From Candidatus Poseidoniaceae archaeon (lineage in GTDB: Archaea; Thermoplasmatota; Poseidoniia; Poseidoniales; Poseidoniaceae): a stretch of 64,000 nucleotides of DNA. The notes under the pieces were generated by a model. It made no database searches. It had not been told where the DNA came from and worked only from the letters and a program-made list of their open reading frames with translations. Positions within the stretch are counted from its first letter, which is position 1. Each line of letters begins with the position of its first letter. Of this stretch, positions 10,080-62,616 are shown one piece after another. The stretch spans positions 1-64,000 of the forward strand of contig JAOMTZ010000001.1 of the NCBI GenBank assembly GCA_028356125.1, read 5' to 3'. The position numbers and the translations under genes were made by a program.

Positions 10080-12146
10080 TTGACTCTGATGCGACCTGTA
10101 GTCGGTTGGCCTATTGCCATCTTCCTATCACTGTTGACAGTGGGTGCGTATCTTAATGGTGAAGCTGTAAATAATTTGGTCGAAGAATATTCTATCACTA
10201 TTGGCGAAGAAGAAGATGAGGGACCATTAGTCGGAATTACAGATGAAGAAAAGTGGTTTGTAGTCTTAATCGACTTCCCCGACCAGCAGGAAGTAGCCAA
10301 TTGTAACCAACAACGAGCCTCAAATATTTTTGATGATGCTGCTGAAGATTACATGCAGCAAGGTATTTCTCCAAACTCTACATTAGAAATTAATTACCAT
10401 GAGCGAATAGTAACTACTGATTTCCCAATGTCTGATTACGGGCATGATGTTAATGGACAAAATGATGTGGGTAGAAACGGAGTCAATCCCAGAATCCTAG
10501 CTCAAGAAATAGTTTTAGAAATCGAGGATGAAGTAGACTGGGATAAATATGATCTCAATGATGATGGTTGGGTTGACCGCTTCCTAATTCTTCACTGTAT
10601 CAAGCCACAGGAAGACGGAGGGGGTTCAAATTCAAGGATTTGGTCTCACTTCTCATCTATTGAAGAGATTGTAGATTTGCCCGATGGAATGAAAATCTCA
10701 CATTACACAATCTCTAGTCAGCATTCTAACAATAATTTTGGCACAGTGATACACGAGATGTACCATCAACTGGGAGCTGCAGATTTGTATCCTGTTGAAG
10801 ATATTACTGTTAACCAGGTTTGGGAGGGTGTTGGAAAATGGGACATCATGGCCCAAGGGAATTGGAATGGAAATGGAGTATGGCCAGCACTACCAACTAC
10901 ACCCAGTATCGAACTTGTAGGTGGAGAACGACACCAAGAAATGCAACTAGACTGGTTGCCAGGAACTAACTGTATAGGCCCTAAAATCAAAATGGAGGGG
11001 CTTTCTGAAGGAGGTACCTCCTTGAAAATCCCTATCGGTGACGAAGAGTATATTTGGATAGAGTACAGAAGTGATTCAGGATATGATTCAAGGCTACCAG
11101 GCAACGGTATTCTTGTATTGCAACAGGATTTAAAATCAGGCGATGTTGATGATAATCTAGTCAATTCGCACCCTGAAAGAGCGTGGTTATTGGTGATTGA
11201 AGCCGATGGTGAACAGAATATGGTCGCAGGTAATAATGAGGGTGAAGCGAGTGACCTATTCTGGGAGAACGACACGTTCGGTGCAGAGGGTGTTACTATC
11301 AGGAATCGGGATGGGATACTAGTTGATTGGACAGCTAAAATTATTATCGAAGATGATTATCCGCACGTTGAATTCTCGTCTACGGAGTGTGGACATATGA
11401 CAGATGTCAACCTACCTGATTTTGGCTCAGTACTAACTATTGATGATAGTATTCCAATCGAAGCAGAATGTGACGGTATTATGTTTGACCTGCAAAGTAG
11501 TGATGGAAGAAACATCGTAGTAGAAGATGGAGAAATAATTTTCCAGCAAACTGGAACAATAGGAGTTATTGGATTGATTACAGGTACTATCTCATGTGAT
11601 TCAGGAACTATTGTTGACGTGAGACATGAATTTGAGATATTTGGAAACATACCAAAAGAAACATCATTTACCAGCAATATCAGATTTAATCAGTTGTCAG
11701 AAATTGAAATACCAATTGAAATTTCGGGAGATGCATCTCAAACTTGGATCATCGGGATAGACGGCCCATTATCGAGAATAGCCACTACTGAAAGTACCAA
11801 GAAAATTTCTCCAGGTTCAACGATCGTGTTGGATATTGACCCGGCTGGTTTGCTAACACCCGGAATGATGGTAAAGGGAGAAGTTATTCTAGCATCTGAT
11901 TCAGGACATCGGTACGCAATAACTGTTGAATTAGAAGCCGAAAGTTCAGAATTATCAACATTTGACAAATACACAAAACCAGCGAATTTAATTCCGATTG
12001 CACTAGCTCTAGCGACACTATGGGTAGTCCTAGGAATTAGTTCACCTACCAGGCAAGTGTCTACGGATGAGCAAGAAATTCCAGTCGTCCCGCTTGAGGG
12101 CGATGACCCATCCTTTGTGGACCCCTTCAGCCAGTCTTACAGATAG
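10080..12146 (+). CDS. M6-family (immune inhibitor A-like) secreted metalloprotease
   Basis: HEMYHQLGAADLYPVE zinc motif (HExxHxxGxxDLY), signal-like N-terminus, C-terminal TM segment. Confidence 0.8.
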   Translation: MTLMRPVVGWPIAIFLSLLTVGAYLNGEAVNNLVEEYSITIGEEEDEGPLVGITDEEKWFVVLIDFPDQQEVANCNQQRASNIFDDAAEDYMQQGISPNSTLEINYHERIVTTDFPMSDYGHDVNGQNDVGRNGVNPRILAQEIVLEIEDEVDWDKYDLNDDGWVDRFLILHCIKPQEDGGGSNSRIWSHFSSIEEIVDLPDGMKISHYTISSQHSNNNFGTVIHEMYHQLGAADLYPVEDITVNQVWEGVGKWDIMAQGNWNGNGVWPALPTTPSIELVGGERHQEMQLDWLPGTNCIGPKIKMEGLSEGGTSLKIPIGDEEYIWIEYRSDSGYDSRLPGNGILVLQQDLKSGDVDDNLVNSHPERAWLLVIEADGEQNMVAGNNEGEASDLFWENDTFGAEGVTIRNRDGILVDWTAKIIIEDDYPHVEFSSTECGHMTDVNLPDFGSVLTIDDSIPIEAECDGIMFDLQSSDGRNIVVEDGEIIFQQTGTIGVIGLITGTISCDSGTIVDVRHEFEIFGNIPKETSFTSNIRFNQLSEIEIPIEISGDASQTWIIGIDGPLSRIATTESTKKISPGSTIVLDIDPAGLLTPGMMVKGEVILASDSGHRYAITVELEAESSELSTFDKYTKPANLIPIALALATLWVVLGISSPTRQVSTDEQEIPVVPLEGDDPSFVDPFSQSYR

Positions 12147-22372: not shown

Positions 22373-23452
22373 ATGGTTAGTGTTAAACATCGAATCAGAT
22401 ATCCTCCTTTTGAATCTGCAAAATTAAAGGCAGAACATATTCCAATTGTCGAATATTCGTTTGAAATTGAAGGCCCTGTAATTCCACCATTCAGACTGGG
22501 AAAAGAGGATTCTTGGCTTGTCGAGAGAGTGATTGAAGGCGAATATGAGAAGGACTCTAATTATCATGGAGATAATCCTCAGATTATTGAAAAACAGCGC
22601 ACAGGATGGTACTTAATCCCTCACCCGATACACGCTAAAGTTCGAAATTATATCAACGGAGTCGTAATACTTCTTCTTTTGTGCTTATTCTACCTATTTA
22701 CTACACCTATTCAATCATCACTAGGAATTACAACATTTGGCACTGGAAAAGTTAGGTTTGGATTGCTAGACTATCCGATTCTAGCAGTGATTATTGTACC
22801 AATGATGATAGCACCAATTATGTTACGTGTTGCTGCAAACCTAGGAGATTTACGAAGGCAGCGTTTATTCCTTTCAAATGCACCTAAGAGTCCTAAGATA
22901 ACAATTGAGGATGTGAAGAGTGGTGAAAACCTCGTAGGTAAAATTGTAATCGATAATCCACAAGAAGATTGGGTCAATATGAAACTATCTTGGCGCGTTG
23001 GGATTTTACCGCCAGCTAGGCATAAAATATTCTCAGCACTTGGCCGTGATAAAGATGGTCAGCCCCCTCCTGGCCTTACAACACCATTACCACACCATTG
23101 GGAAGAAGGACTAGATGATGGAACTGGCATGGGTGAAGATGCACCTATGGAAAGACATGATGCACCAGGTGGAGTGTTCTTGCGCCCAATGAGAATAATG
23201 GGCTTAGGATCCTCTCAATCGTTGGAAATCAATGGTGGCGAATTTGAATTACAAAGGCCCGATGGAGACTGGCCAGGTACTGTATATGGTGACTTATTGA
23301 GAGTTCATTGGGAATTAATTGCGAACATTGAGAGGACCAAAGGCGGACCACTACTATGGGTTGAACCTCTAATTGTATCACACCATGATCAAGCAGTAAT
23401 TAATGAGGATATTCTGATATCAGATGGCCGCACTGAAAGTGACACATTGTGA
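22373..23452 (+). CDS. Hypothetical two-TM membrane protein
   Basis: 359-aa ORF with two hydrophobic segments, 10 nt after the reductase gene. Confidence 0.75.
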   Translation: MVSVKHRIRYPPFESAKLKAEHIPIVEYSFEIEGPVIPPFRLGKEDSWLVERVIEGEYEKDSNYHGDNPQIIEKQRTGWYLIPHPIHAKVRNYINGVVILLLLCLFYLFTTPIQSSLGITTFGTGKVRFGLLDYPILAVIIVPMMIAPIMLRVAANLGDLRRQRLFLSNAPKSPKITIEDVKSGENLVGKIVIDNPQEDWVNMKLSWRVGILPPARHKIFSALGRDKDGQPPPGLTTPLPHHWEEGLDDGTGMGEDAPMERHDAPGGVFLRPMRIMGLGSSQSLEINGGEFELQRPDGDWPGTVYGDLLRVHWELIANIERTKGGPLLWVEPLIVSHHDQAVINEDILISDGRTESDTL

Positions 23453-23483: not shown

Positions 23484-26400
23484 ATGTTCATGGAGAGCAA
23501 GCCACTTAGTGCGGTAATCCTAACTTTAATCATGGTTTTATCAGGGTGTTTAGGCTCAGACAGTGACGTTGAAGATACTGAAAAGGAGATTATCCCAGAA
23601 GATATTTACGCATCTCTTTCAATTAAAGAAATCAATAGTGAATCTACAGTTGGCGAGATTGTAATCATTGATGGATTAGTTGAAATTACGCCAATAGGTT
23701 TGTCTGCCGATTATGAATACGACCTCATTAGTTCTCGTGGAATTGAAAATGTCGAAAGTAGTTTGTCAGAGACTGAGGATGGAATACGGTTGGTATTCGT
23801 TCCAAACGTTCCAGGGGAATGGGTTGTTAATGTTAGATTAATTGTAGAAGGAATTGATGATTCCATCAAAGACCAAATGACATTCACAATACTAGCCCCA
23901 GATGAAGGAAAAACTATTATTTCAGTAGACCCGATAGTTGAGATTGAAAACCCAACGCCATTAACTATAGCCGGTAAAGTAATTCATTCAAATATCTCTA
24001 CTTGCATCATTAGCATTGGAGAACAATACACAGTTTCACCAAACGAATTTGGTGATTTTTCATACTCGTACCAGCCTTCAGAGATTGAAGAATCTTTCAA
24101 TTTGACTGTTAGTGCTGTTTGTGGTGAATACACAAGTACAACTGATTCTCGCATTGTAAGAATAATTCTTCTATCAAACAATGATGCTGATGGAGATGGA
24201 GTTCCAGACGATGCTGATTCATGCCCAAATGGGTTTGGGGAGGATGATGGATGGGTTCCTAACGAAATTACTGATCGTGATGGTGATGGATGCCATGACT
24301 TTGAAGAAGACTTGGATGATGACAATGATCTCATTCCAGATATTGATGATGATTGCGCATCGGAAATAGGATGGATTAGCAATGCTGAAAACGATTATGA
24401 CCGTGATGGTTGCTCAGATTCAACAGAGGATGATGATGATGATAATGATGGAGTCTATGACACATTTGACTCATGCCCTGTAGGTGAAATCGGGTGGGAA
24501 TCAAAGCCCTATACAGATTGGGATGCTGATGGTTGTAGAGACCTTTCAGAGGACCTAGATGACGATAATGATCAAGTAAACGACACTGATGATTCATGTT
24601 GGAGAGGGATCTCAAATTGGTATAGCAATTCTGAATTCGATTATGATGGTGATGGATGTCAAGATTTGTCTGAAGATGATGATGATGACTCAGACGGAGT
24701 AAATGATGTAAATGAAACAGGCGTGATTCTTGATGAATGTCCAAGATCACCACTTAATGCTCAAGACATTGATGAAAGGGGTTGCGACTCAACCGAAAGG
24801 GATACTGATTCTGATGGTGTAATGGACTCTGATGACTATTGCCCTGGAACACCAATCGGGAATATTGTGAACTTGGTTGGATGTGCAGACTTAGATGGTG
24901 ATGGCGTATTCTCCAATGTCGACAATTGTTCAGAAACAGAACCGAAGTGGACACCAGATAATGCAGGTTGTGCTGTTTACCAACTTCCAGTGGCTTGGAA
25001 AGAAACCGGCCATGGTAATGGCCGAATGGACACTGTGGCTCACTTTTCAGTTCCAACATTAGATGGAACATGGTCATTTAGAAATGAGTGGAACGGTGAT
25101 GATGTATACATATTTTTATTCAAATATACAGATAGTTCAGGTAATGGAAATAGTGCAGACTGGACTAAGAGTCCGGGTTCAATGATCAGGCAGTTGCCAG
25201 ATAATGCACACTTATTCTATGGTTCATTCGACAATTCATACCATAACGATGTAATCGGAAGGCAAAATGCTGTTCAAAATGCTTTGAATCCAGATGAAGA
25301 ACTGAAGTGGCAAGACAGAATTCACTACATCGACCAAGACATGTCGACAGCTGGTGGGGGATTAGGAGACTTAATTGGAAACTGGAATTCTTTTTATTAT
25401 GGAATAGATAGATTCCAGAGGGCAAGAGAAATCGGCTCAATTTACGCATGGACAAGTTCATCCAATGACATCACCCATTGGGCATATGAAGCCCGAATGT
25501 ACAATTATGAATATCCTACCGAAGTCAGAGAAAATGATCCAAACGTGCATTCTGTAACCATAATTGATGAGACATGGCACAGCGGTGGCTGGCAAGGAGG
25601 TTACACTTCGACATACCAGGATATTAACATTAATCTTCCAAATAATATCACCACTTATGACACACTAGAAGTCTTCCATGAGCATGCTTGCGAAGATAGA
25701 AGAAATCGTTATTCCAATAGTGATGGAAGCTACGGTGGTTGCCATGAATGGGATTACTTAGCATACATGAAAATCTGTAATCGTGACAATTCAAGTGTTT
25801 GTGGAACTGAATACATGCGTTGGATTACAACATATGGAAGAGAAGGTCGTTGGCTAACAGATATCACTCCATACATGTTCATGTTGGAGGATAATGACGT
25901 TAGGACTTTCAAGTACCAAGGTGCAAATAAGGGACTGATGACAATTAAGTTGCTATTCTCAGACTGGGATGTTGGTGAAAGAAGCAGCAGTGGAGAACAG
26001 GTGTTTACTGGCGGACAATTCAAGGGACAATACAACAATGAATCGCAGTATAAGCGACAACACAACTTCACTGCATTAACCGATTACCACCATGTGAAAA
26101 TTGTTGCCACAATTACAGGACATGGTTTTAATCAGGACCAAGCAAATTGTGCTGAATTCTGTGACCACGAGCACCATTACTACCTAAATGGAAACCATGC
26201 ATACGAATGGCATCCAATTATTGGCGATAATCAAGGCTGTGAGAAATTAGTCGATGAAGGAGTAGTGGCAAATCAATACGGAACATGGCCATATGGTAGA
26301 GCGGGTTGGTGTGCAGGACAGGATGTAAAACAGTGGACATATGACATCACCGATTGGGTAGATAATTCATCTACTAATAATTTGCAATACAAAGGATTGT

Positions 26401-26492
26401 TCAATGGTCAAGAGTATGTTCCACAGGATACTAACGGTGGAAGCCGTGAGATTAGAGCCAACATTTGGTTGGTATGGTACGATCAAAATTGA
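23484..26492 (+). CDS. Lipoprotein with TSP type-3 repeats and a C-terminal PNGase F-like domain
   Basis: Lipobox LSGC; repeated DADGDGVPDDADSCP-type motifs; C-terminus with GCHEWDYLAYMKI, ITTYGREGRWLTDITPY, ITGHGFNQDQANCAEFC, YGRAGWCAGQDV. Confidence 0.8.
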   Translation: MFMESKPLSAVILTLIMVLSGCLGSDSDVEDTEKEIIPEDIYASLSIKEINSESTVGEIVIIDGLVEITPIGLSADYEYDLISSRGIENVESSLSETEDGIRLVFVPNVPGEWVVNVRLIVEGIDDSIKDQMTFTILAPDEGKTIISVDPIVEIENPTPLTIAGKVIHSNISTCIISIGEQYTVSPNEFGDFSYSYQPSEIEESFNLTVSAVCGEYTSTTDSRIVRIILLSNNDADGDGVPDDADSCPNGFGEDDGWVPNEITDRDGDGCHDFEEDLDDDNDLIPDIDDDCASEIGWISNAENDYDRDGCSDSTEDDDDDNDGVYDTFDSCPVGEIGWESKPYTDWDADGCRDLSEDLDDDNDQVNDTDDSCWRGISNWYSNSEFDYDGDGCQDLSEDDDDDSDGVNDVNETGVILDECPRSPLNAQDIDERGCDSTERDTDSDGVMDSDDYCPGTPIGNIVNLVGCADLDGDGVFSNVDNCSETEPKWTPDNAGCAVYQLPVAWKETGHGNGRMDTVAHFSVPTLDGTWSFRNEWNGDDVYIFLFKYTDSSGNGNSADWTKSPGSMIRQLPDNAHLFYGSFDNSYHNDVIGRQNAVQNALNPDEELKWQDRIHYIDQDMSTAGGGLGDLIGNWNSFYYGIDRFQRAREIGSIYAWTSSSNDITHWAYEARMYNYEYPTEVRENDPNVHSVTIIDETWHSGGWQGGYTSTYQDININLPNNITTYDTLEVFHEHACEDRRNRYSNSDGSYGGCHEWDYLAYMKICNRDNSSVCGTEYMRWITTYGREGRWLTDITPYMFMLEDNDVRTFKYQGANKGLMTIKLLFSDWDVGERSSSGEQVFTGGQFKGQYNNESQYKRQHNFTALTDYHHVKIVATITGHGFNQDQANCAEFCDHEHHYYLNGNHAYEWHPIIGDNQGCEKLVDEGVVANQYGTWPYGRAGWCAGQDVKQWTYDITDWVDNSSTNNLQYKGLFNGQEYVPQDTNGGSREIRANIWLVWYDQN

Positions 26493-30602: not shown

Positions 30603-33600
30603 CTACTCCTCAAACGCATTACAAAGTTGGCCTTGGCCAGGGAAGCTGTTGATGTCACGAGGGTTAGTGTCCCACTTGTATTCACAATAGTTAACGTGGC
30701 CATCACCGTCTGTGTCAGTCATTCTGTCGACTCCATCATATGGATCGAAATTGAAATAATACTCCCATCCTGTCGCCATTCCATCATCATCGTGGTCTTG
30801 GTAGAAAACTTCAGCTCCATCTTCCCAGTCGTCACCATCACTGTCATTAGCAATCGGATTTGTTCCATTAACGAACTCTTCAAAACTAGTGTAATTTTCT
30901 AGATTGTCATAGAATGATTTCCCATCTGGAGTATCTGGGTCAATGTGACAATTGCTAGATTGTGGGTCTTCATATGAAGGACAATACTTTGCAATTAACC
31001 CTGTACGGTTTAAGCCATCCTGGTCTGGGTCTTCCATCCCATCATCAATTCCATCAGCATCTGAATCCTTTAGTGCAGGATCCATAACTCCACGAGCCCC
31101 ATTTGCGCTTGTTGTGGCATTGTCAACCAATCCCAGAATAAGTGCCTGTTCAGAGTACCTAACTTCCCAACCGTCTGGAAGAAGGTCACCGTCAGTGTCA
31201 TCATCCACAGGGTTTGTATCCCATCTATCTGGCGCTTCTGCACCGTTTGGTAGTGTGTCGTTATCGATATCATAAGTATCGTCCTTCATCGAACCTTCAG
31301 ACGGGTCTAGTGCCCATCTTCCGTTACAATCACAAAGTGAGTTGGAAGGAACTGCGAAATTAGTCATGTTCATCTCATGAATTTCATATTTCTTTTCTAG
31401 AATAAATCCACCGAGCCAACTCTTCCAGACATACCCACCAGAATCCATACCACACTCAATCATTGAGTCGCATCCAGGAGGAAGCCATAGGTCGGTTGAT
31501 ACCCATAGTGAATGAGATTTCGTATTATCTTCGACAGATTCTATTTGCATCTCCCAACCATCAAGCATGCCGTCGCTGTCTGTATCGTTAATCAAAGGAT
31601 TCGTAGGGTTTTGATACGGCCTAGGAACGAAGAGAACTTCGTAACCATCTTTCAGCCCATCGTTATCTGTGTCCGAATTGTTCGCATGAGTTAGGAAGTT
31701 GTCTAGTCCAAGAATTACTTCTTCACCATCTTCCAATCCATCGTTGTCTGTATCGTACATACATGGGCTGGTGAAGTAGTCTTCACCGTACCATGAGAAA
31801 CCATTCAGTGCTTCGGCTTGATCTCCTAAACCATCACCATCTGTGTCTGCGTTTGACGCATTAGAGCCTGTTTCACAGACATCATTGAATTCTTTGTAAT
31901 CTGAAAGTCCATCTTCGTCAGTGTCCCAAAGTCCAGGGTCTGATGTAACACGAACATTCTGAACACCACGGTTAACGACTAGTATTTCCCAGCCAATAAC
32001 TTCGATTCCATCTTTCAAACCGTCTCCATCGGTATCAGGGTTTAGTGGGTCAGTAGAACGACCGTCAATGATCCCATCACCGTCTGAATCTCTAGCATTG
32101 TATTCCATAAGATTGGTGAACATTTCATCTAATTCAACAATTTCAAGCCAGACATCAAGCCTACTTTCGATTGTGTCACCGACTTCGACATTAATTGAGT
32201 AAACGTAACCCTCGACAGGGGCTACTAGAGGGATAACCTGTTGGTTACCTCCGGATAATGTAATTCTAGCACGTGCAACTGTTTCGTTAACGCTTACCCA
32301 GTCATCAAGTTCAACATCAATAGCAACAACTAGTGCTGCATTTTCAAGGGTTGAGAAGGTAACCATACCATTCTTGTCAGCGTCATATCCATCACGGTCT
32401 GAATCAATGTCCCCATTGGAACCATCTCTTGGATCTAGACCGTTTGTGGCTTCCCATCCATCAGGCATTCCATCTTCATCAGTATCAGCATGCCAAGGAG
32501 AAGTGAATTTATCATCTCCAAATGCAATAGCTACTTGATATTCTTCGATGTTATTCATTCCATCTTCATCCCAATCGCCATATCCATCAGAACTATTTGC
32601 TGGATTCAACATCTGCTGGAAGGCTAAAGTTGGGTTCTTCGGGTTACTTTTCATAGCAGGATGGTCATTGACTTCGCCGAAACAGAATTCAAACCCATCA
32701 GGCATCCCGTCACCGTCTGTATCCCAGTCAGAAGGTCCATTCAGTAGGCCATCTCCATCCATGTCTTCCTTGAACCAAGCAAGTCCATTTTCCAAGACTT
32801 CCTGGGCGAAAGGAGCATCCCTGATAATCGGGGTAATGAGACTTAGACCACAGTTTTGTCCAGTTGCCCTCATTACTGAGATCGTTGAATTTGAAACCTC
32901 GTGACTATCATTTAGCATATCCCCATCAGAGTCAGGCTTGGTTGGGTCTGTTCCATAATCTTCCTCCTCGAAGTTGAATAATGTGTCTTCATCAGAATCT
33001 AACACTTGGTCGCAGGAATGTTGTCCGGCACCATTGGATAATCCTTCCCAACTGGGCACACCATTTTTCCCATCGAAATGATCTTTAAGAGATTGAGTCA
33101 TTGCAGCATCTAATTTTACACAATCCCAGTTAGGAGAAAGAGGGTCAAACAATGTGAAGTTACCACGTGGGTCTTCGACAAATTGCTTGTAGGTTACTTC
33201 CCACTTGTCATTTAGTCCATCACCATCTGTGTCGGCAAGACGAGGATTAGTACCTTCGATTACTTCGATTGAATTGATTAATCCATCTCGGTCGGGATCT
33301 CCTTTTGGTCCGTCATCAGGATCAGGCCATGAATCGTCTTCATCCTGTTCTTCTGCGTCCTCGGAATTGGCTTCACTCGGATCATTATCCGCATCATCTG
33401 ATTCTCCGTTGTCAAGAGGATTGAGGCCATTTTCTACTTCCCAGCCGTCTTCCATACCGTCGCTATCAGTATCGTTGTCTAAGGGATCTGTACCATATTG
33501 AGCTTCGATCGCATCTGGGAGACCATCATTGTCAGTGTCCATAGATTGGCCAGTATTGGAGCCATCTCCGATGATATCATCTTCTGCCGCAGCATCGAAA

Positions 33601-33713
33601 TCACCAGCGGTTTCGCTGGTTTGGAAGAATCCGGTAGCACCTACGAAAAGTGAACCGAAAATTAGAGTTGAGACTATGGCGACATAGGCCATCTGGTTGT
33701 GTGAAACTGTCAT
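30603..33713 (-). CDS. Large secreted protein with many TSP type-3/calcium-binding-like repeats
   Basis: More than ten copies of DTDxDGLxDGxEV/DxDNDGL; N-terminal hydrophobic segment. Confidence 0.85.
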   Translation of the reverse strand: MTVSHNQMAYVAIVSTLIFGSLFVGATGFFQTSETAGDFDAAAEDDIIGDGSNTGQSMDTDNDGLPDAIEAQYGTDPLDNDTDSDGMEDGWEVENGLNPLDNGESDDADNDPSEANSEDAEEQDEDDSWPDPDDGPKGDPDRDGLINSIEVIEGTNPRLADTDGDGLNDKWEVTYKQFVEDPRGNFTLFDPLSPNWDCVKLDAAMTQSLKDHFDGKNGVPSWEGLSNGAGQHSCDQVLDSDEDTLFNFEEEDYGTDPTKPDSDGDMLNDSHEVSNSTISVMRATGQNCGLSLITPIIRDAPFAQEVLENGLAWFKEDMDGDGLLNGPSDWDTDGDGMPDGFEFCFGEVNDHPAMKSNPKNPTLAFQQMLNPANSSDGYGDWDEDGMNNIEEYQVAIAFGDDKFTSPWHADTDEDGMPDGWEATNGLDPRDGSNGDIDSDRDGYDADKNGMVTFSTLENAALVVAIDVELDDWVSVNETVARARITLSGGNQQVIPLVAPVEGYVYSINVEVGDTIESRLDVWLEIVELDEMFTNLMEYNARDSDGDGIIDGRSTDPLNPDTDGDGLKDGIEVIGWEILVVNRGVQNVRVTSDPGLWDTDEDGLSDYKEFNDVCETGSNASNADTDGDGLGDQAEALNGFSWYGEDYFTSPCMYDTDNDGLEDGEEVILGLDNFLTHANNSDTDNDGLKDGYEVLFVPRPYQNPTNPLINDTDSDGMLDGWEMQIESVEDNTKSHSLWVSTDLWLPPGCDSMIECGMDSGGYVWKSWLGGFILEKKYEIHEMNMTNFAVPSNSLCDCNGRWALDPSEGSMKDDTYDIDNDTLPNGAEAPDRWDTNPVDDDTDGDLLPDGWEVRYSEQALILGLVDNATTSANGARGVMDPALKDSDADGIDDGMEDPDQDGLNRTGLIAKYCPSYEDPQSSNCHIDPDTPDGKSFYDNLENYTSFEEFVNGTNPIANDSDGDDWEDGAEVFYQDHDDDGMATGWEYYFNFDPYDGVDRMTDTDGDGHVNYCEYKWDTNPRDINSFPGQGQLCNAFEE

Positions 33714-33815
33714 CTTAATACTCTCCGCACGGTAATGCAAGTTACTCCACTACAGTTCTGGTCATAAACCTTCACGGTAGATGATTTGACTAAAGATTTT
33801 TTTTTGCCTAGAATA

Positions 33816-40985: not shown

Positions 40986-43931
40986 TCACCATGCGTCGCC
41001 ATGGTCTGGAATAAGAGTAGCATCTACTACATCGATGTCGCCACGTGAAGCAACACGGCCTAATCCAAGTTTACGGGCCATTGAACTGGCACCACCTGTT
41101 GAGCCAATACCTAATTCCTCAAGCAGTACAAAGATTGCAGGTAGCAATATTAGAGCACTTGCTGCTGCAATCCATAGTAGTATAATTATCACCGTAATGA
41201 ACGGTTTAATTTCAGGAATAGGAATTTGATATGCGGTTATCATCCCTAGAGTAGTAACTGTTGCCGCCTCGAAAAGAGACATCCCCGTACTCACCGTAGA
41301 ATTACGAATAGCTTCAATTCCGCCACCTAATTCACGAATACGATTCGCTATGTGAATAGAGAAATCAACCCCTACTCCTACGAGAATTGACCCAATCATG
41401 ACAGTAACCAAAGACAAAGAGACATCCATCTGCCACATCACCAACCATTGGAGAGCAACTGTTGCAATAACGGGGGCAGTAGTCCACATTGAAAACCGAA
41501 TATCCTTGAACACAATAGCCAATGTCATTAAAGTCAAAACTATTGCAAAGCCGAGTGATGACCATTGGCTTCCAACAATCATTTCATTGACTGCAATGGC
41601 TGTTGCAGCAACTCCAGTTAAATCACCAGAGTCAATATTTCCTTTATGATTACGAGATGAGAACTCATTCACTTGAGCAACTGCGTCTGAGGTTTCAGCA
41701 ACTGGAACGAAAGGCATATCGACATAAATCAGATTACGGCTGTAATCGTCAGAAATAAACAACCCTCGTGTTTCATCAGTGAGACTTGAGTAGAATACAT
41801 TTAGCAAGAATCTTTCAGCATTTTCATTTTCAGTTCCGTTAGCCCTAGGAGCTGTCAGAACTTCCCAGAAAGTTACGTCTTCAGAATACTTACGATTCAA
41901 ATATGGTTCTAAAGCATCTTTCAATTCGTCTGGAACCAATGGGTTATCTGTCAAATTCCACAATGGCGTACCGCTCAAATTCCCACCAAAACCTACTGAT
42001 TTCATTAAGAATACAATACTAACTGCTGTAGTTTGATCTATTGTATTCAACTCATTTTCTAAATCAGATATGCCGAGCAATTTCTCAACGGGTTCAGCTT
42101 CTGTAATTTCAGAATCCCCCGAAATATCACCGTGAATTAGCACCATTCCAACCTGGCCGGCATTGAAGTCGTTAGAATATTGTTTCATAGTAACCACTGA
42201 AGGCTCATTCTCTGGAGCCATACCAAGCAAATCGATATTCTCTTCAACATTCTCTTGGCCCCAATATCCAGATATAAATATCAAGACCATGAAGAAAGCA
42301 ATTACTGCTTTAGAATACTTGATAGGAACTTGAACTACTTTTTCGAATACAGGAAGAGGTGGATGCTTAGGTTTGCGTAAATCTAGAAGTAACGTAAGGT
42401 TTGGAACCATTGCCATTGTTAGAACATACACTACTACAATACCACCTGAAAGGGCAATACCTACTGTTTCAATCGGCTTCATCGGAGTGAATGTAAGGGA
42501 AATGAATCCGATAACTGTTGTTATAGCAGATAGGAATACTGCTCGCCCAGTAGAGGCTAATGATTGTCGTATTTTCTCGTCCTTAGTACCAGTCTCTTCC
42601 GCATATCTATTGGTTATGTGAAGACCATATGAAACACCCAAGGCTAACAGAATCGGACCGACGATAATTACCGTCATGGTCACCTCATAACCCGTATAAC
42701 CCATTATTCCAAGAGTACAGAAAACCGAACACAATGTCGGCAGACCTGCAATTACTACTACCTTGAACCCCTGTACTGGTCTCCAAGAACCAGTCTGAAG
42801 GACATCAGAGTGGAAAACGAATAGTCCAAGTGCTACTAGCACAATCGCTAGTGGGAAGATTTGCCAAAACAGTTTGAATGAAAACTCAGTCACTGCATTC
42901 GTAATTGGAACTGGACCTGTTAATGTCATAGATACACCAAGGTCTTCCCAGTTACACAAATCTGCACCAATAGGATCTCCGTTTTGATCGAACTCACAAG
43001 GGCGCTCTTCCTTGGAGATATTATCGAGGATTTGTTGAGTTTTCTCAATTACTTCTTTGGCCGTCTTAGTTTCATCAACTGCAATAATAATTACTGCTTT
43101 ATCTAGGAATCCATCGTCATCGGTATCTCTTGATAATTTGTCTAAACCAGGAGATGGTGTCCCATCATCTTCGTACATTTCGTTAACTATTGTATCGATA
43201 GTAGTCTGTGATGGTATACTGTAATTACCCCAAATAGGGTCAGCAAAATCAAGAATATCTTTTGCAATGTCGCCTGCATCTTGACCTACACAATTATCTT
43301 CATTGGGGGGGCAAATTACCGAGACTAGTTCATCAATAAATGCGTCTTGAACTCGAGGGACACTAGAGTTGACTTCCTTTACCACAGTTGAAAGTGATAA
43401 TGCGTATATTACGTCGTCGGTAGGGTCTGAAAGTCTTGGATTTAATTTATTCTCGACATACGACATCTCTTGTAATATTCTACGATCATCTATGGGTTTC
43501 TCGGGAGAATCAATGTAAATGATCATTACATTCGTGGACCAATTTTCTTCGACCTCCCTTATTGTCTCTAGAACCGGGGAGCCTTCTGGCAAGTAAACAT
43601 CCAAATCTCCATTGACGTTAAGTGAAGGTTCATCTCCTGGTTTCAACGAAGTTCCATCTACGAAACCTGAGTGATATGCAAAGAAAACAGAAGCTAGAAG
43701 ACAGATTGTAACCATGAAAATTGGAAATTTGGTTAGGATACCAGTTGCACCATGCTTTTGCCATTCTCGCTGTAGTGATTTTGGAGCATCTAAAACCGCA
43801 TCAAGAGCCTTGCGAGCATCCCAATCTTTCACTCTACTGCTTAGTTTTTCTTGGCCATGGCCGACTATTCGAGAAAGACGGTTTTGAAGTGGAGACGTGT
43901 CTTCGCCTGACTTTGAATCATCTTTCGACAT
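40986..43931 (-). CDS. RND/MMPL-family transporter (patched-like)
   Basis: Two repeated six-TM sensor-like blocks (VTMTVIIVGPILLALGVSYGLHITNRYAEE and LVTVMIGSILVGVGVDFSIHIANRIREL). Confidence 0.88.
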   Translation of the reverse strand: MSKDDSKSGEDTSPLQNRLSRIVGHGQEKLSSRVKDWDARKALDAVLDAPKSLQREWQKHGATGILTKFPIFMVTICLLASVFFAYHSGFVDGTSLKPGDEPSLNVNGDLDVYLPEGSPVLETIREVEENWSTNVMIIYIDSPEKPIDDRRILQEMSYVENKLNPRLSDPTDDVIYALSLSTVVKEVNSSVPRVQDAFIDELVSVICPPNEDNCVGQDAGDIAKDILDFADPIWGNYSIPSQTTIDTIVNEMYEDDGTPSPGLDKLSRDTDDDGFLDKAVIIIAVDETKTAKEVIEKTQQILDNISKEERPCEFDQNGDPIGADLCNWEDLGVSMTLTGPVPITNAVTEFSFKLFWQIFPLAIVLVALGLFVFHSDVLQTGSWRPVQGFKVVVIAGLPTLCSVFCTLGIMGYTGYEVTMTVIIVGPILLALGVSYGLHITNRYAEETGTKDEKIRQSLASTGRAVFLSAITTVIGFISLTFTPMKPIETVGIALSGGIVVVYVLTMAMVPNLTLLLDLRKPKHPPLPVFEKVVQVPIKYSKAVIAFFMVLIFISGYWGQENVEENIDLLGMAPENEPSVVTMKQYSNDFNAGQVGMVLIHGDISGDSEITEAEPVEKLLGISDLENELNTIDQTTAVSIVFLMKSVGFGGNLSGTPLWNLTDNPLVPDELKDALEPYLNRKYSEDVTFWEVLTAPRANGTENENAERFLLNVFYSSLTDETRGLFISDDYSRNLIYVDMPFVPVAETSDAVAQVNEFSSRNHKGNIDSGDLTGVAATAIAVNEMIVGSQWSSLGFAIVLTLMTLAIVFKDIRFSMWTTAPVIATVALQWLVMWQMDVSLSLVTVMIGSILVGVGVDFSIHIANRIRELGGGIEAIRNSTVSTGMSLFEAATVTTLGMITAYQIPIPEIKPFITVIIILLWIAAASALILLPAIFVLLEELGIGSTGGASSMARKLGLGRVASRGDIDVVDATLIPDHGDAW

Positions 43932-57837: not shown

Positions 57838-60800
57838 TTACTTGACCAAGCGCTTGATGATTTCTTCCTTGGTACCAGAGGATAGAACGCCCTCAGCGTC
57901 TGCCATTCTGGTCAAGTCGCCTATATCCAACTCCATCAACTCTGCAGTCTTTGCTGCCCTCTTTTCCTTCTTGGCCAACCTTTCCTTCTTCTGATCCTCT
58001 AATTCAGCAGGACTCTTCTTCTTACGCTTTACAGATTTTCTACTCTTATTGTCAACTGTAGGATCGGGCTGAGTTGGCGCCTCTAGAGTTGGTAGACTCA
58101 CGGTTTCGACTGTTGCTTCTTTCGTAATATCGCCTCTTCCATCAAGGGCCATAGCTACAGTATCGACATCTTGGCTATCGGACACAACTGTTGGAAGATC
58201 TGGTGTTATCTTGGAAGAGGTAGTATCCTCTTCATCTTCCCACTCATCATCATCATAGAATATGCTCTCATCAGAGTTGTCACGTCGCATTAATACAACG
58301 ATTGTGAATGCAGCGCCGAACAATAATAGTACGAGTATAATGTTGAATGCAGTTAATCCGTCCAATCCGGATTCAACATCATCCTGACTAATTACACGAG
58401 GCATGTCGGATTCTACATTCAAACTGCAAGTAGCGTTATCCAGTACAGCATAACAATGTGGAAGAACCGAGTTTTCAACCCAACTATCCATACCTGTGAC
58501 ATTTACATAGAGGTTCTGTTGACCTGCACCGTGCGTCTCATACAACATTGGAATGGTGAATAATGATTGGCCAGGTGAAAGAGATAACTCCATGTCACCG
58601 TGTGATAGCCAACTTCGAGATTCACCCATGTCTTCCATTAGTGAAACTGTGACTGTACCTGTTTTAGTTCCGAGATTGCGAACATGTACAATCACTCCAA
58701 GCTCTGTCCCTTCAACTACTTCATTACCCCGAGGTGCTTTACCATCTGCAAGTGAGATTTCGATATTAGTTACTGTTACATCAAAAGAAAGTACTGTGAA
58801 GTCGGTATTCATTGCATCTATCAATGACATACCCGTCCCAGTAGCAGTATTACCTGCTCGATCAACTACGTCAATCCACCAGATTAATTCATCACCATCT
58901 TCTAGGCTTACATTGACGCCCTCGGTGAAATCGATACCTCCGACATAGGACCAAATGCCAGAGTTGTTTGAGATGTATGGTATAGGAGAACTAGATTGAC
59001 CTTTATCCATGATTAGGTTATTTCTCAGGAAAGCCCAATTCACTAAGAGGTCACCTTCAGGCATTCCACCATCTTCAGTAATCTGAATTGCGAACTGCAG
59101 AACTTCCAAATCGTAGTCATCCAAAGATAATGGGACTGAAGAGAATTGGACCACTGGTGATGTTTCATCCACCGTGATAGAAGTTTGCACATCAGTACTG
59201 TCTTCACCAGGAGCAGGAACACCGGTGATGAAATAATCGACAACTAGAATGTTTTCGACTAGTGATCGTGAAGGCAATATCAATCCGGCATCCCAAGTAC
59301 CATTCTCGCCTACTTCAGCATATGATTGAATTGTTTCAGAACCGTAAATAGTAGACACTGCAATCTCTAGCCCTTGGCCTGGTAAAGTAGTCAAATGGGC
59401 GCCAGACTTCTCAAACACTACAGTTCCAGAGAAAGTTAGGTCATCCCCTGGTTGAACATAGATTTGATTGGATGAACTTGCTGAAATCGGAGGAGTGTTG
59501 TCGACCATGCCGTCTACAACGACTTGCAAATTATTGTCCAATTGCCATCTTATCGAACCAAGATTAGTCATCAGCACAACTGGATTCAAGTCATCGTCAT
59601 CGAAAACAACGATTCCCGGAAGTGCATACTCTGAGATTTGGTTTTCATCGAAATCCCAATCAAGAGTGAAATCCCATTCGACAAGAGAATAAGCACCTTC
59701 TTCGGTTACTCTGACGTCATGTAAGGTCAGCTGAGACAACTCATCTGCATACATTGCCCCATTGCGAGGCTCCCAATTCATAACACCGACTTCATCCTCA
59801 TCCGCCCCTAACAACTTTACAGTTACTAAGTCGACAGAGTTGACACCATTAGCATCATCTATATTCATCGAAAGAGTATGCATTTGCCCTACCATCAATT
59901 GTTCATTCACAGTATTCAAATTCAAACTTGCAGAAGGAATTTCAGTTGGCTCATTAACTGCAATAATGAGTGTCGCCATGTCGTTGTCGACACCTGCATC
60001 TCCACCATACATCAATTGATGACCGGCATAATCAGTTCCTGTAAAGTAAACAGAGAATAAAGCGTTCATTTCCAAACTAGAAACATCGATTCCACTGTAG
60101 GTGAGAGTTCTTTCACCAGAGATGCCCTCTGGTAAATTTTCGAACATTGTTTGATACTCTGATTCATCTGCTTGACCATCACCATTAGTGTCATCCATTA
60201 CTTCTCTCCAGTAATGCATCGTAAGTTTGTCACCCAAGGCTTGGTTATCTGTAACTGTAACTTGAAGTGAAAGTGTTGATGAAGGATCCCAAGTGAACCC
60301 ATCTGCAGCCAATAACCTCTGACCGTTGTTGATTTGAAGATTGGAAGCCCAAGGCGAATCACCATCAAGAAGAATGTTGACTGGAGTTGTCAAAGTCGTA
60401 TCTTCAGCCCCGTTTGCTCCAGTTATCGGTCCAGCTCTGAATACATACGGAGTGATATTTGCTTGAGATGTGTTGTAAGGAAGTGTCACTAAGCCAGTCC
60501 ATTGACCATCAGATGTTGAATTTAGAATGACATCCACTCCATCAATATCGACTGCCACAATGAAATCATCTACATTAGGGCGCATGTCAAGGGTGTTTTC
60601 GAATCTAACAGTACCAGAAACTGAAACTTGGCTGCCGGATTTAGCCCAGAATGGATACGCTGGTGAAAACATGTCAGACAGATCATGTCCGAACAAATCT
60701 GATACTTGCCAAGAATCAACTTGAAGGTCATTCTCACTTGCTTGAGTTGCTATACCGCCAGATTGGGCTGTTGCAGGAGATAGACCTTCGCCTTCCTCAT

Positions 60801-62616
60801 CATAACCTTGTGCAGACCAACTAATTGATTGTGAATCGTTCCAATCCCAATCAACTTCGAATTGCCAATCAACTACTATCCGGCCACCTATTTCACTAAC
60901 CGAGGAGCTATTGTTCAGTTCCAACATTCCAAATCCGCTAGCTTGTGTAAATGTCCCACCTGATTGAATATCGCTAAGAACAATATTGACACTATCACCA
61001 GAAGAATCCAGACCAATCAAGTGGATTTCGTCTATGTTTTCGTTTCCTAACAGATGATGATGCTGAGTAGTAAACCCTTGAAGAAGATGGTTTGGATACC
61101 ATGTTTCAGGGACATTGAATGGATGGTTTGTTATCATGTTCTCATGATACACGCCACCGTCAATAGAGACTCCACCTGCAACGGATTGCCAAGTTAGAGG
61201 AACATCAACAATATTTTCTAATCCATTATTTGAGTTGATTTCATGATAAGTTTTGACAGTCTGTCCCAACCCGGAGACGTTCTCAAACAGATTGTAACCA
61301 ATAGCGAATGAGCCAATGGTGTAGGATGTTGTAGGAGACGAGTTTAGATTAATGTCAATCATAGACCAGTTTCTTCCACTTGGGTCCACATGAGTACTAG
61401 ATGCAGATAACTGTGGATTAGATATTGAAATTACAGATGTTGACCAATTGTAAGAAGATAATTGGTAGAATGAATTGCCTCCACTCGAAATTGTCAAAGG
61501 ATTTGTTTCTCCACTTGGAGTAATTCCCAGAAGTAAACTGTGAATGTTTGCTGATTCTGGAATCATTACAGACAATGTATCATTGCCAACTACGCCCATG
61601 GAGTGAGATGTTGTTGTTGAATCAATCCGAGTCTGCCACCCGTATGAACCATATGATGGTGAAGATGTGAATGACCAATCGATGACACCATCATCTGCCA
61701 AGTCGATTGATGCATCATGTGCAGGTTGAGCAAAGTTACCTCTGAAAGCTAGTGATTTGATCATAGCACCAGGAGCCATTGATACCTTCGGGCTAACATA
61801 TGTTCTCATGTCACCTAAGTTAAGCACAGAATTGGCAGTTGTTGCAGATACTGTTTGTGTTCCAACAGTAATCAGTGATGCGGTTGTCTGGGAGAAGTTC
61901 CCAGTCACCGTAGCTGATGAAATCGGCCTTGATGAATAACCTGACTGGCCAGTAATTACTTGTGTACCGCCGCCATTATTTCCCCATGTACCATTGGACA
62001 ATCGAGTGATTGAAGAAGGAATGTTCCAACCATTTCCATCACCTAAATATCTAGTTGCGCCAACTGTTAATTCACGAATCAGTGGAGTATAGTACTCGTC
62101 ATCTGTCCCCATCACCATTTCAATATGGATGTCCGGATTAGCATCACGATCGATGCTCGCTAACGATAACGGTAAACTCACATTATCATGCCCGCTAATG
62201 ACCTGCCCTGTAGCGTCTAAAACATTCACTCCATACCAAGTATTGTTAGGAAGAACAATATCTGCATCTACGAAACCATTCCCTAAATCATGAGTTGAAA
62301 TTGCAGGACTGGTCCAAGACCCTTCGGTTTCAAACCAGTCTACTTCTAGTCCGATATTGTCGACATACCAACCAGGTTCATTGACAGCAGAATCTCCAAC
62401 CTGGCGGAATTTGAAAGACACGTTGTTACCTGACAAGTTGGAAACATCATACGCCATGTCAAGCCATGGAATATTAGCAGAACTGGTACATGAAAATGAA
62501 CCCGATGCTGCTACGTATTGTCGCCCATCCCATACATCCGTTCCGCTATATGTACCCCAAGTAATCGATCCATCATACCAGTTAGTATCGTTCGCATAGT
62601 TGATATAAGCTTGAGT
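57838..62616 (-). CDS. Giant surface protein, downstream (C-terminal) part: TM anchor and cytoplasmic SAP-like tail
   Basis: Continuous frame from 62616; listed ORF begins at 62457. Ig-like domains, TM TAFNIILVLLLFGAAFTIVVLMRR, tail LMELDIGDLTRMADAEGVLSSGTKEEIIKRLVK. Confidence 0.8.
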   Translation of the reverse strand, partial: TQAYINYANDTNWYDGSITWGTYSGTDVWDGRQYVAASGSFSCTSSANIPWLDMAYDVSNLSGNNVSFKFRQVGDSAVNEPGWYVDNIGLEVDWFETEGSWTSPAISTHDLGNGFVDADIVLPNNTWYGVNVLDATGQVISGHDNVSLPLSLASIDRDANPDIHIEMVMGTDDEYYTPLIRELTVGATRYLGDGNGWNIPSSITRLSNGTWGNNGGGTQVITGQSGYSSRPISSATVTGNFSQTTASLITVGTQTVSATTANSVLNLGDMRTYVSPKVSMAPGAMIKSLAFRGNFAQPAHDASIDLADDGVIDWSFTSSPSYGSYGWQTRIDSTTTSHSMGVVGNDTLSVMIPESANIHSLLLGITPSGETNPLTISSGGNSFYQLSSYNWSTSVISISNPQLSASSTHVDPSGRNWSMIDINLNSSPTTSYTIGSFAIGYNLFENVSGLGQTVKTYHEINSNNGLENIVDVPLTWQSVAGGVSIDGGVYHENMITNHPFNVPETWYPNHLLQGFTTQHHHLLGNENIDEIHLIGLDSSGDSVNIVLSDIQSGGTFTQASGFGMLELNNSSSVSEIGGRIVVDWQFEVDWDWNDSQSISWSAQGYDEEGEGLSPATAQSGGIATQASENDLQVDSWQVSDLFGHDLSDMFSPAYPFWAKSGSQVSVSGTVRFENTLDMRPNVDDFIVAVDIDGVDVILNSTSDGQWTGLVTLPYNTSQANITPYVFRAGPITGANGAEDTTLTTPVNILLDGDSPWASNLQINNGQRLLAADGFTWDPSSTLSLQVTVTDNQALGDKLTMHYWREVMDDTNGDGQADESEYQTMFENLPEGISGERTLTYSGIDVSSLEMNALFSVYFTGTDYAGHQLMYGGDAGVDNDMATLIIAVNEPTEIPSASLNLNTVNEQLMVGQMHTLSMNIDDANGVNSVDLVTVKLLGADEDEVGVMNWEPRNGAMYADELSQLTLHDVRVTEEGAYSLVEWDFTLDWDFDENQISEYALPGIVVFDDDDLNPVVLMTNLGSIRWQLDNNLQVVVDGMVDNTPPISASSSNQIYVQPGDDLTFSGTVVFEKSGAHLTTLPGQGLEIAVSTIYGSETIQSYAEVGENGTWDAGLILPSRSLVENILVVDYFITGVPAPGEDSTDVQTSITVDETSPVVQFSSVPLSLDDYDLEVLQFAIQITEDGGMPEGDLLVNWAFLRNNLIMDKGQSSSPIPYISNNSGIWSYVGGIDFTEGVNVSLEDGDELIWWIDVVDRAGNTATGTGMSLIDAMNTDFTVLSFDVTVTNIEISLADGKAPRGNEVVEGTELGVIVHVRNLGTKTGTVTVSLMEDMGESRSWLSHGDMELSLSPGQSLFTIPMLYETHGAGQQNLYVNVTGMDSWVENSVLPHCYAVLDNATCSLNVESDMPRVISQDDVESGLDGLTAFNIILVLLLFGAAFTIVVLMRRDNSDESIFYDDDEWEDEEDTTSSKITPDLPTVVSDSQDVDTVAMALDGRGDITKEATVETVSLPTLEAPTQPDPTVDNKSRKSVKRKKKSPAELEDQKKERLAKKEKRAAKTAELMELDIGDLTRMADAEGVLSSGTKEEIIKRLVK

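What the first reader, a model, noticed from the sequence alone, without database searches (positions are those of the whole stretch)
25551..26492. Archaeal lipoprotein with TSP3 repeats and a PNGase F-like domain
The C-terminus matches Flavobacterium PNGase F from memory at several blocks: CHEWDYLAYMKI (CDEWDRYANVYV), TTYGREGRWLTDITPY (ITPY...), NCAEFC (GCAEWC) and YGRAGWCAGQDV (DRAGWCPGMAV). The Asp of EWD and the Glu of CAE correspond to catalytic residues of that family. This suggests a cell-surface deglycosylase acting on environmental glycoproteins or the cell's own N-glycans.
Basis: partly seen in the sequence, partly recalled or inferred. Interest (0 to 1): 0.65.

Follow-up and report, generated by a model that had tools for sequence, protein, structure and literature searches.

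The report
Marine archaeal surface N-glycan-removing enzyme
A very common uncultured ocean archaeon encodes a predicted cell-surface enzyme that cuts asparagine-linked sugar chains off proteins; it resembles fish Ngly2 more than the laboratory enzyme PNGase F, and it probably helps the cell feed on sugar-coated proteins.

Summary
ORF 23484-26492 (+) encodes a 1002-aa lipoprotein: lipobox, variable region, TSP3-like Ca-binding repeats, a probable thioredoxin-like segment and a C-terminal PNGase module. Pfam N-glycanase_C matches at 3.8e-20. A profile of 33 relatives finds zebrafish Ngly2, a proven acid PNGase, at 2.5e-55 and PNGase F over both domains at 4e-8. Foldseek ranks Ngly2 first, then only PNGases, for two moderate-confidence models. 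Both essential residues are invariant: D757 (PNGase F D60) and E891 (E206). One block was misregistered: FITPY pairs with WITTY. Nearest kin are Ngly2 and Deinococcus PNGaseDr; unlike them it lacks the PA lid and has a TSP3 stalk. It occurs in 84/97 genomes of the window's family, in conserved gene order, and all-or-none by genus in the sister family (13/69). STT3/AglB is nearly universal (171/176); N-glycan exoglycosidases are largely absent. Best reading: a tethered deglycosylase that unmasks environmental glycoproteins for proteolysis. Fold and catalytic residues are computed; activity, location and substrate are inferred. No paper searched describes an archaeal PNGase.

The parts
23484..26492 (+). 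Complete gene, 1002-aa predicted surface lipoprotein with C-terminal PNGase module
   Evidence: Open frame; 65 relatives in Poseidoniales; conserved gene order
23484..23549 (+). Signal peptide and lipobox LSGC; C22 is the predicted lipidated cysteine
   Evidence: The G and C of the lipobox are invariant in 55 full-length relatives; no twin-arginine motif in the sequence
23571..24173 (+). Variable N-terminal region, aa ~30-230, function unassigned
   Evidence: Almost no invariant residues; no Pfam match
24180..24968 (+). TSP3-like acidic Ca-binding repeats, aa ~233-495; predicted stiff stalk
   Evidence: PF02412 E=0.0031, three stretches, below cut-off; 11 DxDxDG/DDDxD motifs and 34% D+E
24972..25553 (+). 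Probable thioredoxin-like segment, aa ~497-690, without redox CxxC and without an inserted PA domain
   Evidence: The only PDB match up to E=10 is the Tx-like domain of Ngly2 in the same order (E=0.054); alpha/beta pattern in the model; only one Cys
25554..26489 (+). PNGase F/Ngly2-type catalytic module, aa ~691-1002
   Evidence: PF09113, profile matches, Foldseek
25749..25757 (+). W756-D757-Y758; D757 is the predicted catalytic Asp
   Evidence: Aligned with PNGase F W59-D60-R61 and Ngly2 W420-D421-H422; W and D invariant
26121..26123 (+). H880 of ITGHGF, predicted to face the core GlcNAc
   Evidence: Aligned with PNGase F W191; His in Ngly2 and PNGaseDr
26154..26156 (+). E891 of NCAEFC, the predicted catalytic Glu
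   Evidence: Aligned with PNGase F E206 and Ngly2 E555; invariant

Best explanation
The gene encodes a peptide:N-glycanase of the PNGase F superfamily, Ngly2/PNGaseDr type, exported by Sec and tethered by a lipidated cysteine, with the catalytic module held away from the cell by a Ca-binding TSP3-like stalk. D757 (with E891) is expected to hydrolyse the amide between Asn and the first GlcNAc, releasing the glycan and leaving Asp. The PA lid that covers the Ngly2 active site is absent, so the cleft should be more open and able to take folded or bulky glycoproteins. The role I think most likely is to strip N-glycans from environmental (algal, animal or archaeal) glycoproteins so that the cell's extracellular peptidases can digest the polypeptide. 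Shown by computation: homology, fold, conserved catalytic residues, cysteine pattern, domain order, distribution. Inferred: enzymatic activity, surface location, substrate, physiological role.
For: PF09113 at 3.8e-20, and in 33/33 relatives. Profile against PDB: Ngly2 2.5e-55, PNGase F 4e-8 over both domains. Foldseek: Ngly2 first, then PNGase F, PNGF-II, PNGase Bf and other PNGases. D757 and E891 are invariant, and present in the distant f3 lineage too; Ngly2 D421A and E555A are dead (PMC12753239). The three cysteine pairs of PNGase F are matched by invariant cysteines, plus a fourth pair shared with Ngly2 and PNGaseDr. PNGaseDr, the nearest bacterial hit (32.8%, E=2e-39), is one of five enzymes reported to show narrower specificity than PNGaseL in the same assays (PMC12381499). 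MGII are described as proteolytic, with extracellular peptidases. GH20 in 0/24, GH92 in 0/24 and GH38 in 2/24 genomes argue that the peptide rather than the glycan is the goal. STT3 is present in PNGase-less genera. Gene order is conserved across the family.
Against: No biochemical data exist for any archaeal member. The third residue discussed for PNGase F, E118 (from memory), has no acidic counterpart here, although Ngly2 lacks it too. Ngly2 W480, predicted to stack on the second GlcNAc/mannose, has no clear counterpart, so glycan specificity may differ. Model confidence is moderate (pLDDT 67 and 72). The Ngly2 acid optimum was linked to histidines, and seawater is alkaline. Neighbouring genes include no obvious partner for glycan use, and the substrate is an indirect inference.
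Confidence: 0.7

Rival explanations
1. It is an active PNGase whose main substrate is the cell's own AglB-attached N-glycans (surface-layer turnover, quality control or glycan release).
For: The genome encodes an STT3/AglB. Chitobiose N-glycan cores are known in several archaea (PMC2948927, PMC12153357), so an own-glycan substrate is chemically possible.
Against: STT3 occurs in 171/176 Poseidoniia genomes, the PNGase in 102/176, with seven genera of the sister family having STT3 and no PNGase (0/56). The gene is not near aglB (about 130 kb away on the same contig).
Confidence: 0.17
2. It is a catalytically dead PNGase-fold glycan-binding or adhesion lipoprotein, in which the fold and TSP3 repeats serve attachment to particles.
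For: Thrombospondin-type proteins have been linked to adhesion in MGII (PMC6461757); E118 and W480 equivalents are missing.
Against: W756, D757, H880, E891 and R939 and all eight module cysteines are invariant over large divergence, which binding alone would hardly require; Ngly2 also lacks E118 and is active.
Confidence: 0.1
3. The gene is eukaryotic or bacterial contamination in the metagenome-assembled genome.
For: The best solved relative is a fish protein and the genome is a draft.
Against: Present in over 100 Poseidoniia genomes, with the same gene order topoisomerase - reductase - hypothetical - PNGase - CofH - M24 peptidase across the family; relatives include records whose names (AG-404-K16, AG-461-G23) suggest single-cell genomes.
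Confidence: 0.01

Closest known systems
Ngly2 (zebrafish acid PNGase, PDB 9lwg)
   Same: Same PNGase module (E=2.5e-55), same catalytic Asp and Glu, fourth cysteine pair, His in GHG, and probably a redox-dead thioredoxin-like domain in front.
   Different: Ngly2 is lysosomal, has a PA domain over the active site and dimerises through Tx-like/PA domains; the archaeal protein has no PA domain, has TSP3-like repeats and a lipobox; Y758 in place of H422 and no W480 counterpart.
PNGaseDr (Deinococcus radiodurans WP_010889584.1)
   Same: 32.8% identity over 92% of the query; WDY, GHGF and CAEFC motifs identical; also begins with a lipobox-like signal.
   Different: Has a PA domain (PF02225) and no TSP3 repeats.
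PNGase F (Elizabethkingia meningoseptica, 1pnf)
   Same: Both jelly-roll domains align (E=4e-8); D60 and E206 and three cysteine pairs retained.
   Different: About 18-19% identity in structure alignments; W191 is His here, R61 is Tyr, E118 absent; PNGase F has no accessory domains and groups with Bacteroidota proteins.
Bacteroidota PNGases (PNGF-II, PNGase Bf, 7zgn)
   Same: Same fold (Foldseek E about 1e-7 to 1e-9).
   Different: Different accessory modules (PMC12381499) and only about 12% identity.

Membership tests
PNGase F superfamily (PF09112 + PF09113) | N-glycanase_C domain | tested here: met
   72.6 bits against cut-off 25; 33/33 relatives
PNGase F superfamily (PF09112 + PF09113) | N-glycanase_N domain | tested here: inconclusive
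   No PF09112 match in the window protein, none in the genome, where no control rang either; but the A1 profile aligns across the N domain of PNGase F and the predicted fold covers it
PNGase F superfamily (PF09112 + PF09113) | Two side-by-side jelly-roll fold | tested here: met
   Foldseek TM 0.74 (query) to Ngly2 and 0.62-0.64 to PNGase F; moderate-confidence model
PNGase F superfamily (PF09112 + PF09113) | Catalytic Asp (D60) and Glu (E206) | tested here: met
   D757 and E891, invariant
PNGase F superfamily (PF09112 + PF09113) | E118 of PNGase F (not required: also absent in active Ngly2) | tested here: not met
   No conserved acidic residue at that place in the archaeal proteins or in Ngly2
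PNGase F superfamily (PF09112 + PF09113) | Release of N-glycans from Asn | not testable with these tools
   Needs an enzyme assay
Ngly2/PNGaseDr type | Groups with Ngly2 and PNGaseDr apart from PNGase F and Bacteroidota proteins | tested here: met
   Support 99/98, with long-branch warning
Ngly2/PNGaseDr type | Fourth cysteine pair (C765/C773) and His in GHG | tested here: met
   the pairing is inferred from position
Ngly2/PNGaseDr type | Redox-dead thioredoxin-like domain in front | tested here: inconclusive
   The only PDB match is the Ngly2 Tx-like domain, E=0.054
Ngly2/PNGaseDr type | PA domain | tested here: not met
   No PF02225 match, found in PNGaseDr; too few residues in the segment for an insert
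TSP3 repeat proteins | PF02412 above gathering score | tested here: inconclusive
   17.6 against 25 bits, three stretches; clear DxDxDG motifs

The most novel reading that the evidence does not exclude
A PA-less, TSP3-stalked, lipid-anchored Ngly2-type PNGase is the first described archaeal PNGase, and it gives the dominant surface-ocean archaea a direct route into eukaryotic or archaeal N-glycoproteins, with a glycan specificity different from that of PNGase F and Ngly2.
Probability: 0.5. Interest if true: 0.68.

Novelty: new variant of a known kind. Interest (0 to 1): 0.52.

Why it matters
No paper found in the open library describes an archaeal PNGase, and two genome surveys of Marine Group II do not mention one in their main text. 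If active, it adds glycoprotein deglycosylation to how these abundant ocean archaea feed, and separates them by genus. It also gives a natural test of what the PA lid and the active-site histidines do in Ngly2, because the archaeal enzyme keeps one histidine (H880), replaces the other by Tyr and lacks the lid. It would be a candidate reagent for marine glycoproteomics.

Tried and rejected
Membership by Pfam N-glycanase_N: not detected, and the own-genome search had no positive control. Searches of viral contigs and phages: no relatives, so no sign of phage carriage. A search of other bacterial phyla with the genome search was not possible, because only genome handles of the window's phylum can be centres. 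Contamination was rejected by synteny. Use of released glycans by exoglycosidases was tested and largely rejected for GH20, GH92 and GH38 only; other glycosidase families were not tested. A tree with 26 rows cannot place the archaeal branch relative to Ngly2 and PNGaseDr because long branches meet, so the direction of transfer between animals, bacteria and archaea is left open.

Full report
Observation. The finding covers the last third of one intact ORF, 23484-26492 (+), 1002 aa. From N to C the protein has a signal peptide with a lipobox ending at C22 (the G and C are invariant in 55 full-length relatives), a variable region, an acidic repeat region with 11 DxDxDG/DDDxD motifs that Pfam matches to TSP3 below its cut-off, a conserved segment of about 190 aa, and a C-terminal module of about 310 aa. 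The module matches Pfam N-glycanase_C at E=3.8e-20.

Family. phmmer against all PDB sequences returned one hit, zebrafish Si:dkey-256h2.1 (9lwg), E=4e-42. That protein is Ngly2, a lysosomal acid PNGase whose D421A and E555A mutants are inactive (PMC12753239). A profile of 33 Poseidoniales sequences found Ngly2 at 2.5e-55 and PNGase F at about 4e-8 over both of its domains. Two AlphaFold2 models of moderate confidence (pLDDT 66.6 and 71.7) both ranked Ngly2 first and only PNGases next in Foldseek; after the PNGases the domain-only model found PHM, a copper enzyme that I recall sharing the PNGase F fold.

Active site. D757 aligns with PNGase F D60 and Ngly2 D421, E891 with E206 and E555, and H880 with PNGase F W191 and Ngly2 H546 (the Ngly2 numbers follow from the paper's numbering by an offset of 25 from the chain index). 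The aromatic-Asp-aromatic/positive motif plus His and Glu is the pattern reported as general for PNGases, PNGase F being the exception in having Trp (PMC12381499). The eight cysteines of the module are invariant: three pairs match those of PNGase F and a fourth (C765/C773) is shared only with Ngly2 and Deinococcus PNGaseDr among the sequences aligned. E118 of PNGase F has no acidic counterpart, as in Ngly2, and Ngly2 W480 has no clear counterpart, so the site for the second GlcNAc and mannose probably differs. I did not measure the superposition of side chains.

Architecture compared with relatives. The nearest bacterial hit in the collections searched is PNGaseDr (32.8%, E=2e-39), which carries a PA domain, as does Ngly2. 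The archaeal proteins have no PA match. The segment before the module finds only the Ngly2 thioredoxin-like domain in the whole PDB, weakly (E=0.054), so I call it probable. In Ngly2 the PA domain lies over the active site, and the enzyme cannot cut a cyclic glycopeptide that PNGase F cuts; a PA-less enzyme should be more open. This is inference. A 26-row tree puts the archaeal proteins with Ngly2 and PNGaseDr, apart from PNGase F and two Bacteroidota proteins (99/98), with long-branch warnings.

Distribution. The gene lies in a conserved order across the family: topoisomerase, reductase, hypothetical, PNGase, then convergent CofH, M24 peptidase, PKD protein and TSP3 protein. Among 176 Poseidoniia genomes (the window's own, 65% complete, and 175 of at least 80%) the profile finds it in 102: 84/97 in the window's family, 13/69 in the sister family and 5/10 in a third family of the class. 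In the sister family it is all-or-none by genus (g14 7/7, g16 3/3, g18 2/2, g21 1/1; none of 56 genomes in the other seven genera) (with genus totals). Family PF09113 was not found in Thermoplasmatota genomes outside the class among 390 searched. No viral or phage relative was found.

Role. Oligosaccharyltransferase STT3 is found in 171 of the same 176 genomes, including the PNGase-less genera, so the enzyme is not a standing part of the cell's own N-glycosylation. Among 24 genomes of the family, GH20 and GH92 are absent and GH38 is present in two; consumption of eukaryotic N-glycans by these routes is therefore unlikely. Marine Group II genomes are described as proteolytic, with extracellular peptidases. 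I therefore favour a tethered deglycosylase that exposes polypeptides to proteases. One survey reports algal-oligosaccharide glycoside hydrolases confined to MGIIa and basal MGIIb; the PNGase distribution looks similar, but I did not match its clades to mine.

Novelty. No paper in the searched library describes an archaeal PNGase; the library lacks most subscription journals, and domain databases assign PF09113 automatically, so the absence is limited evidence. The fold and catalysis are known; the domain combination and the archaeal host are new as far as this search reaches.

Noticed in passing
L111:3670-12585 (-), same contig as the window, about G000:C1:151669-160584: The STT3/AglB catalytic domain sits at the N-terminus of a 2971-aa protein whose long tail has carboxypeptidase-regulatory-like and NOMO1-like beta-sandwich domains; most Poseidoniia genomes have STT3 in a 2200-3300-aa open frame, far larger than usual AglB.
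   Followed up: partly
window 10080-12146 (+) and 57838-62457 (-): Peptidase M6 (immune inhibitor A type) of 688 aa, and a 1539-aa protein with a weak InhA-like MAM match; candidate extracellular peptidases in the same window as the PNGase.
   Followed up: no
window 30603-33740 (-): A second TSP3-rich protein (TSP3_bac, five stretches, E=8e-25), 1045 aa, strongly conserved next to the PNGase locus across the family.
   Followed up: no
window 40986-43931 (-): 981-aa MMPL/sterol-sensing-domain (Patched-like) transporter in an archaeon.
   Followed up: no
L066 (Bacteroidetes MAG from goat omasum): A 1168-aa PNGase-type protein containing the same EWDYLAYMKI string as the window protein but with a large insert between the two halves of the module.
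   Followed up: no
window 22373-23452 (+): 359-aa hypothetical protein without Pfam match, directly upstream of the PNGase gene throughout the family.
   Followed up: partly
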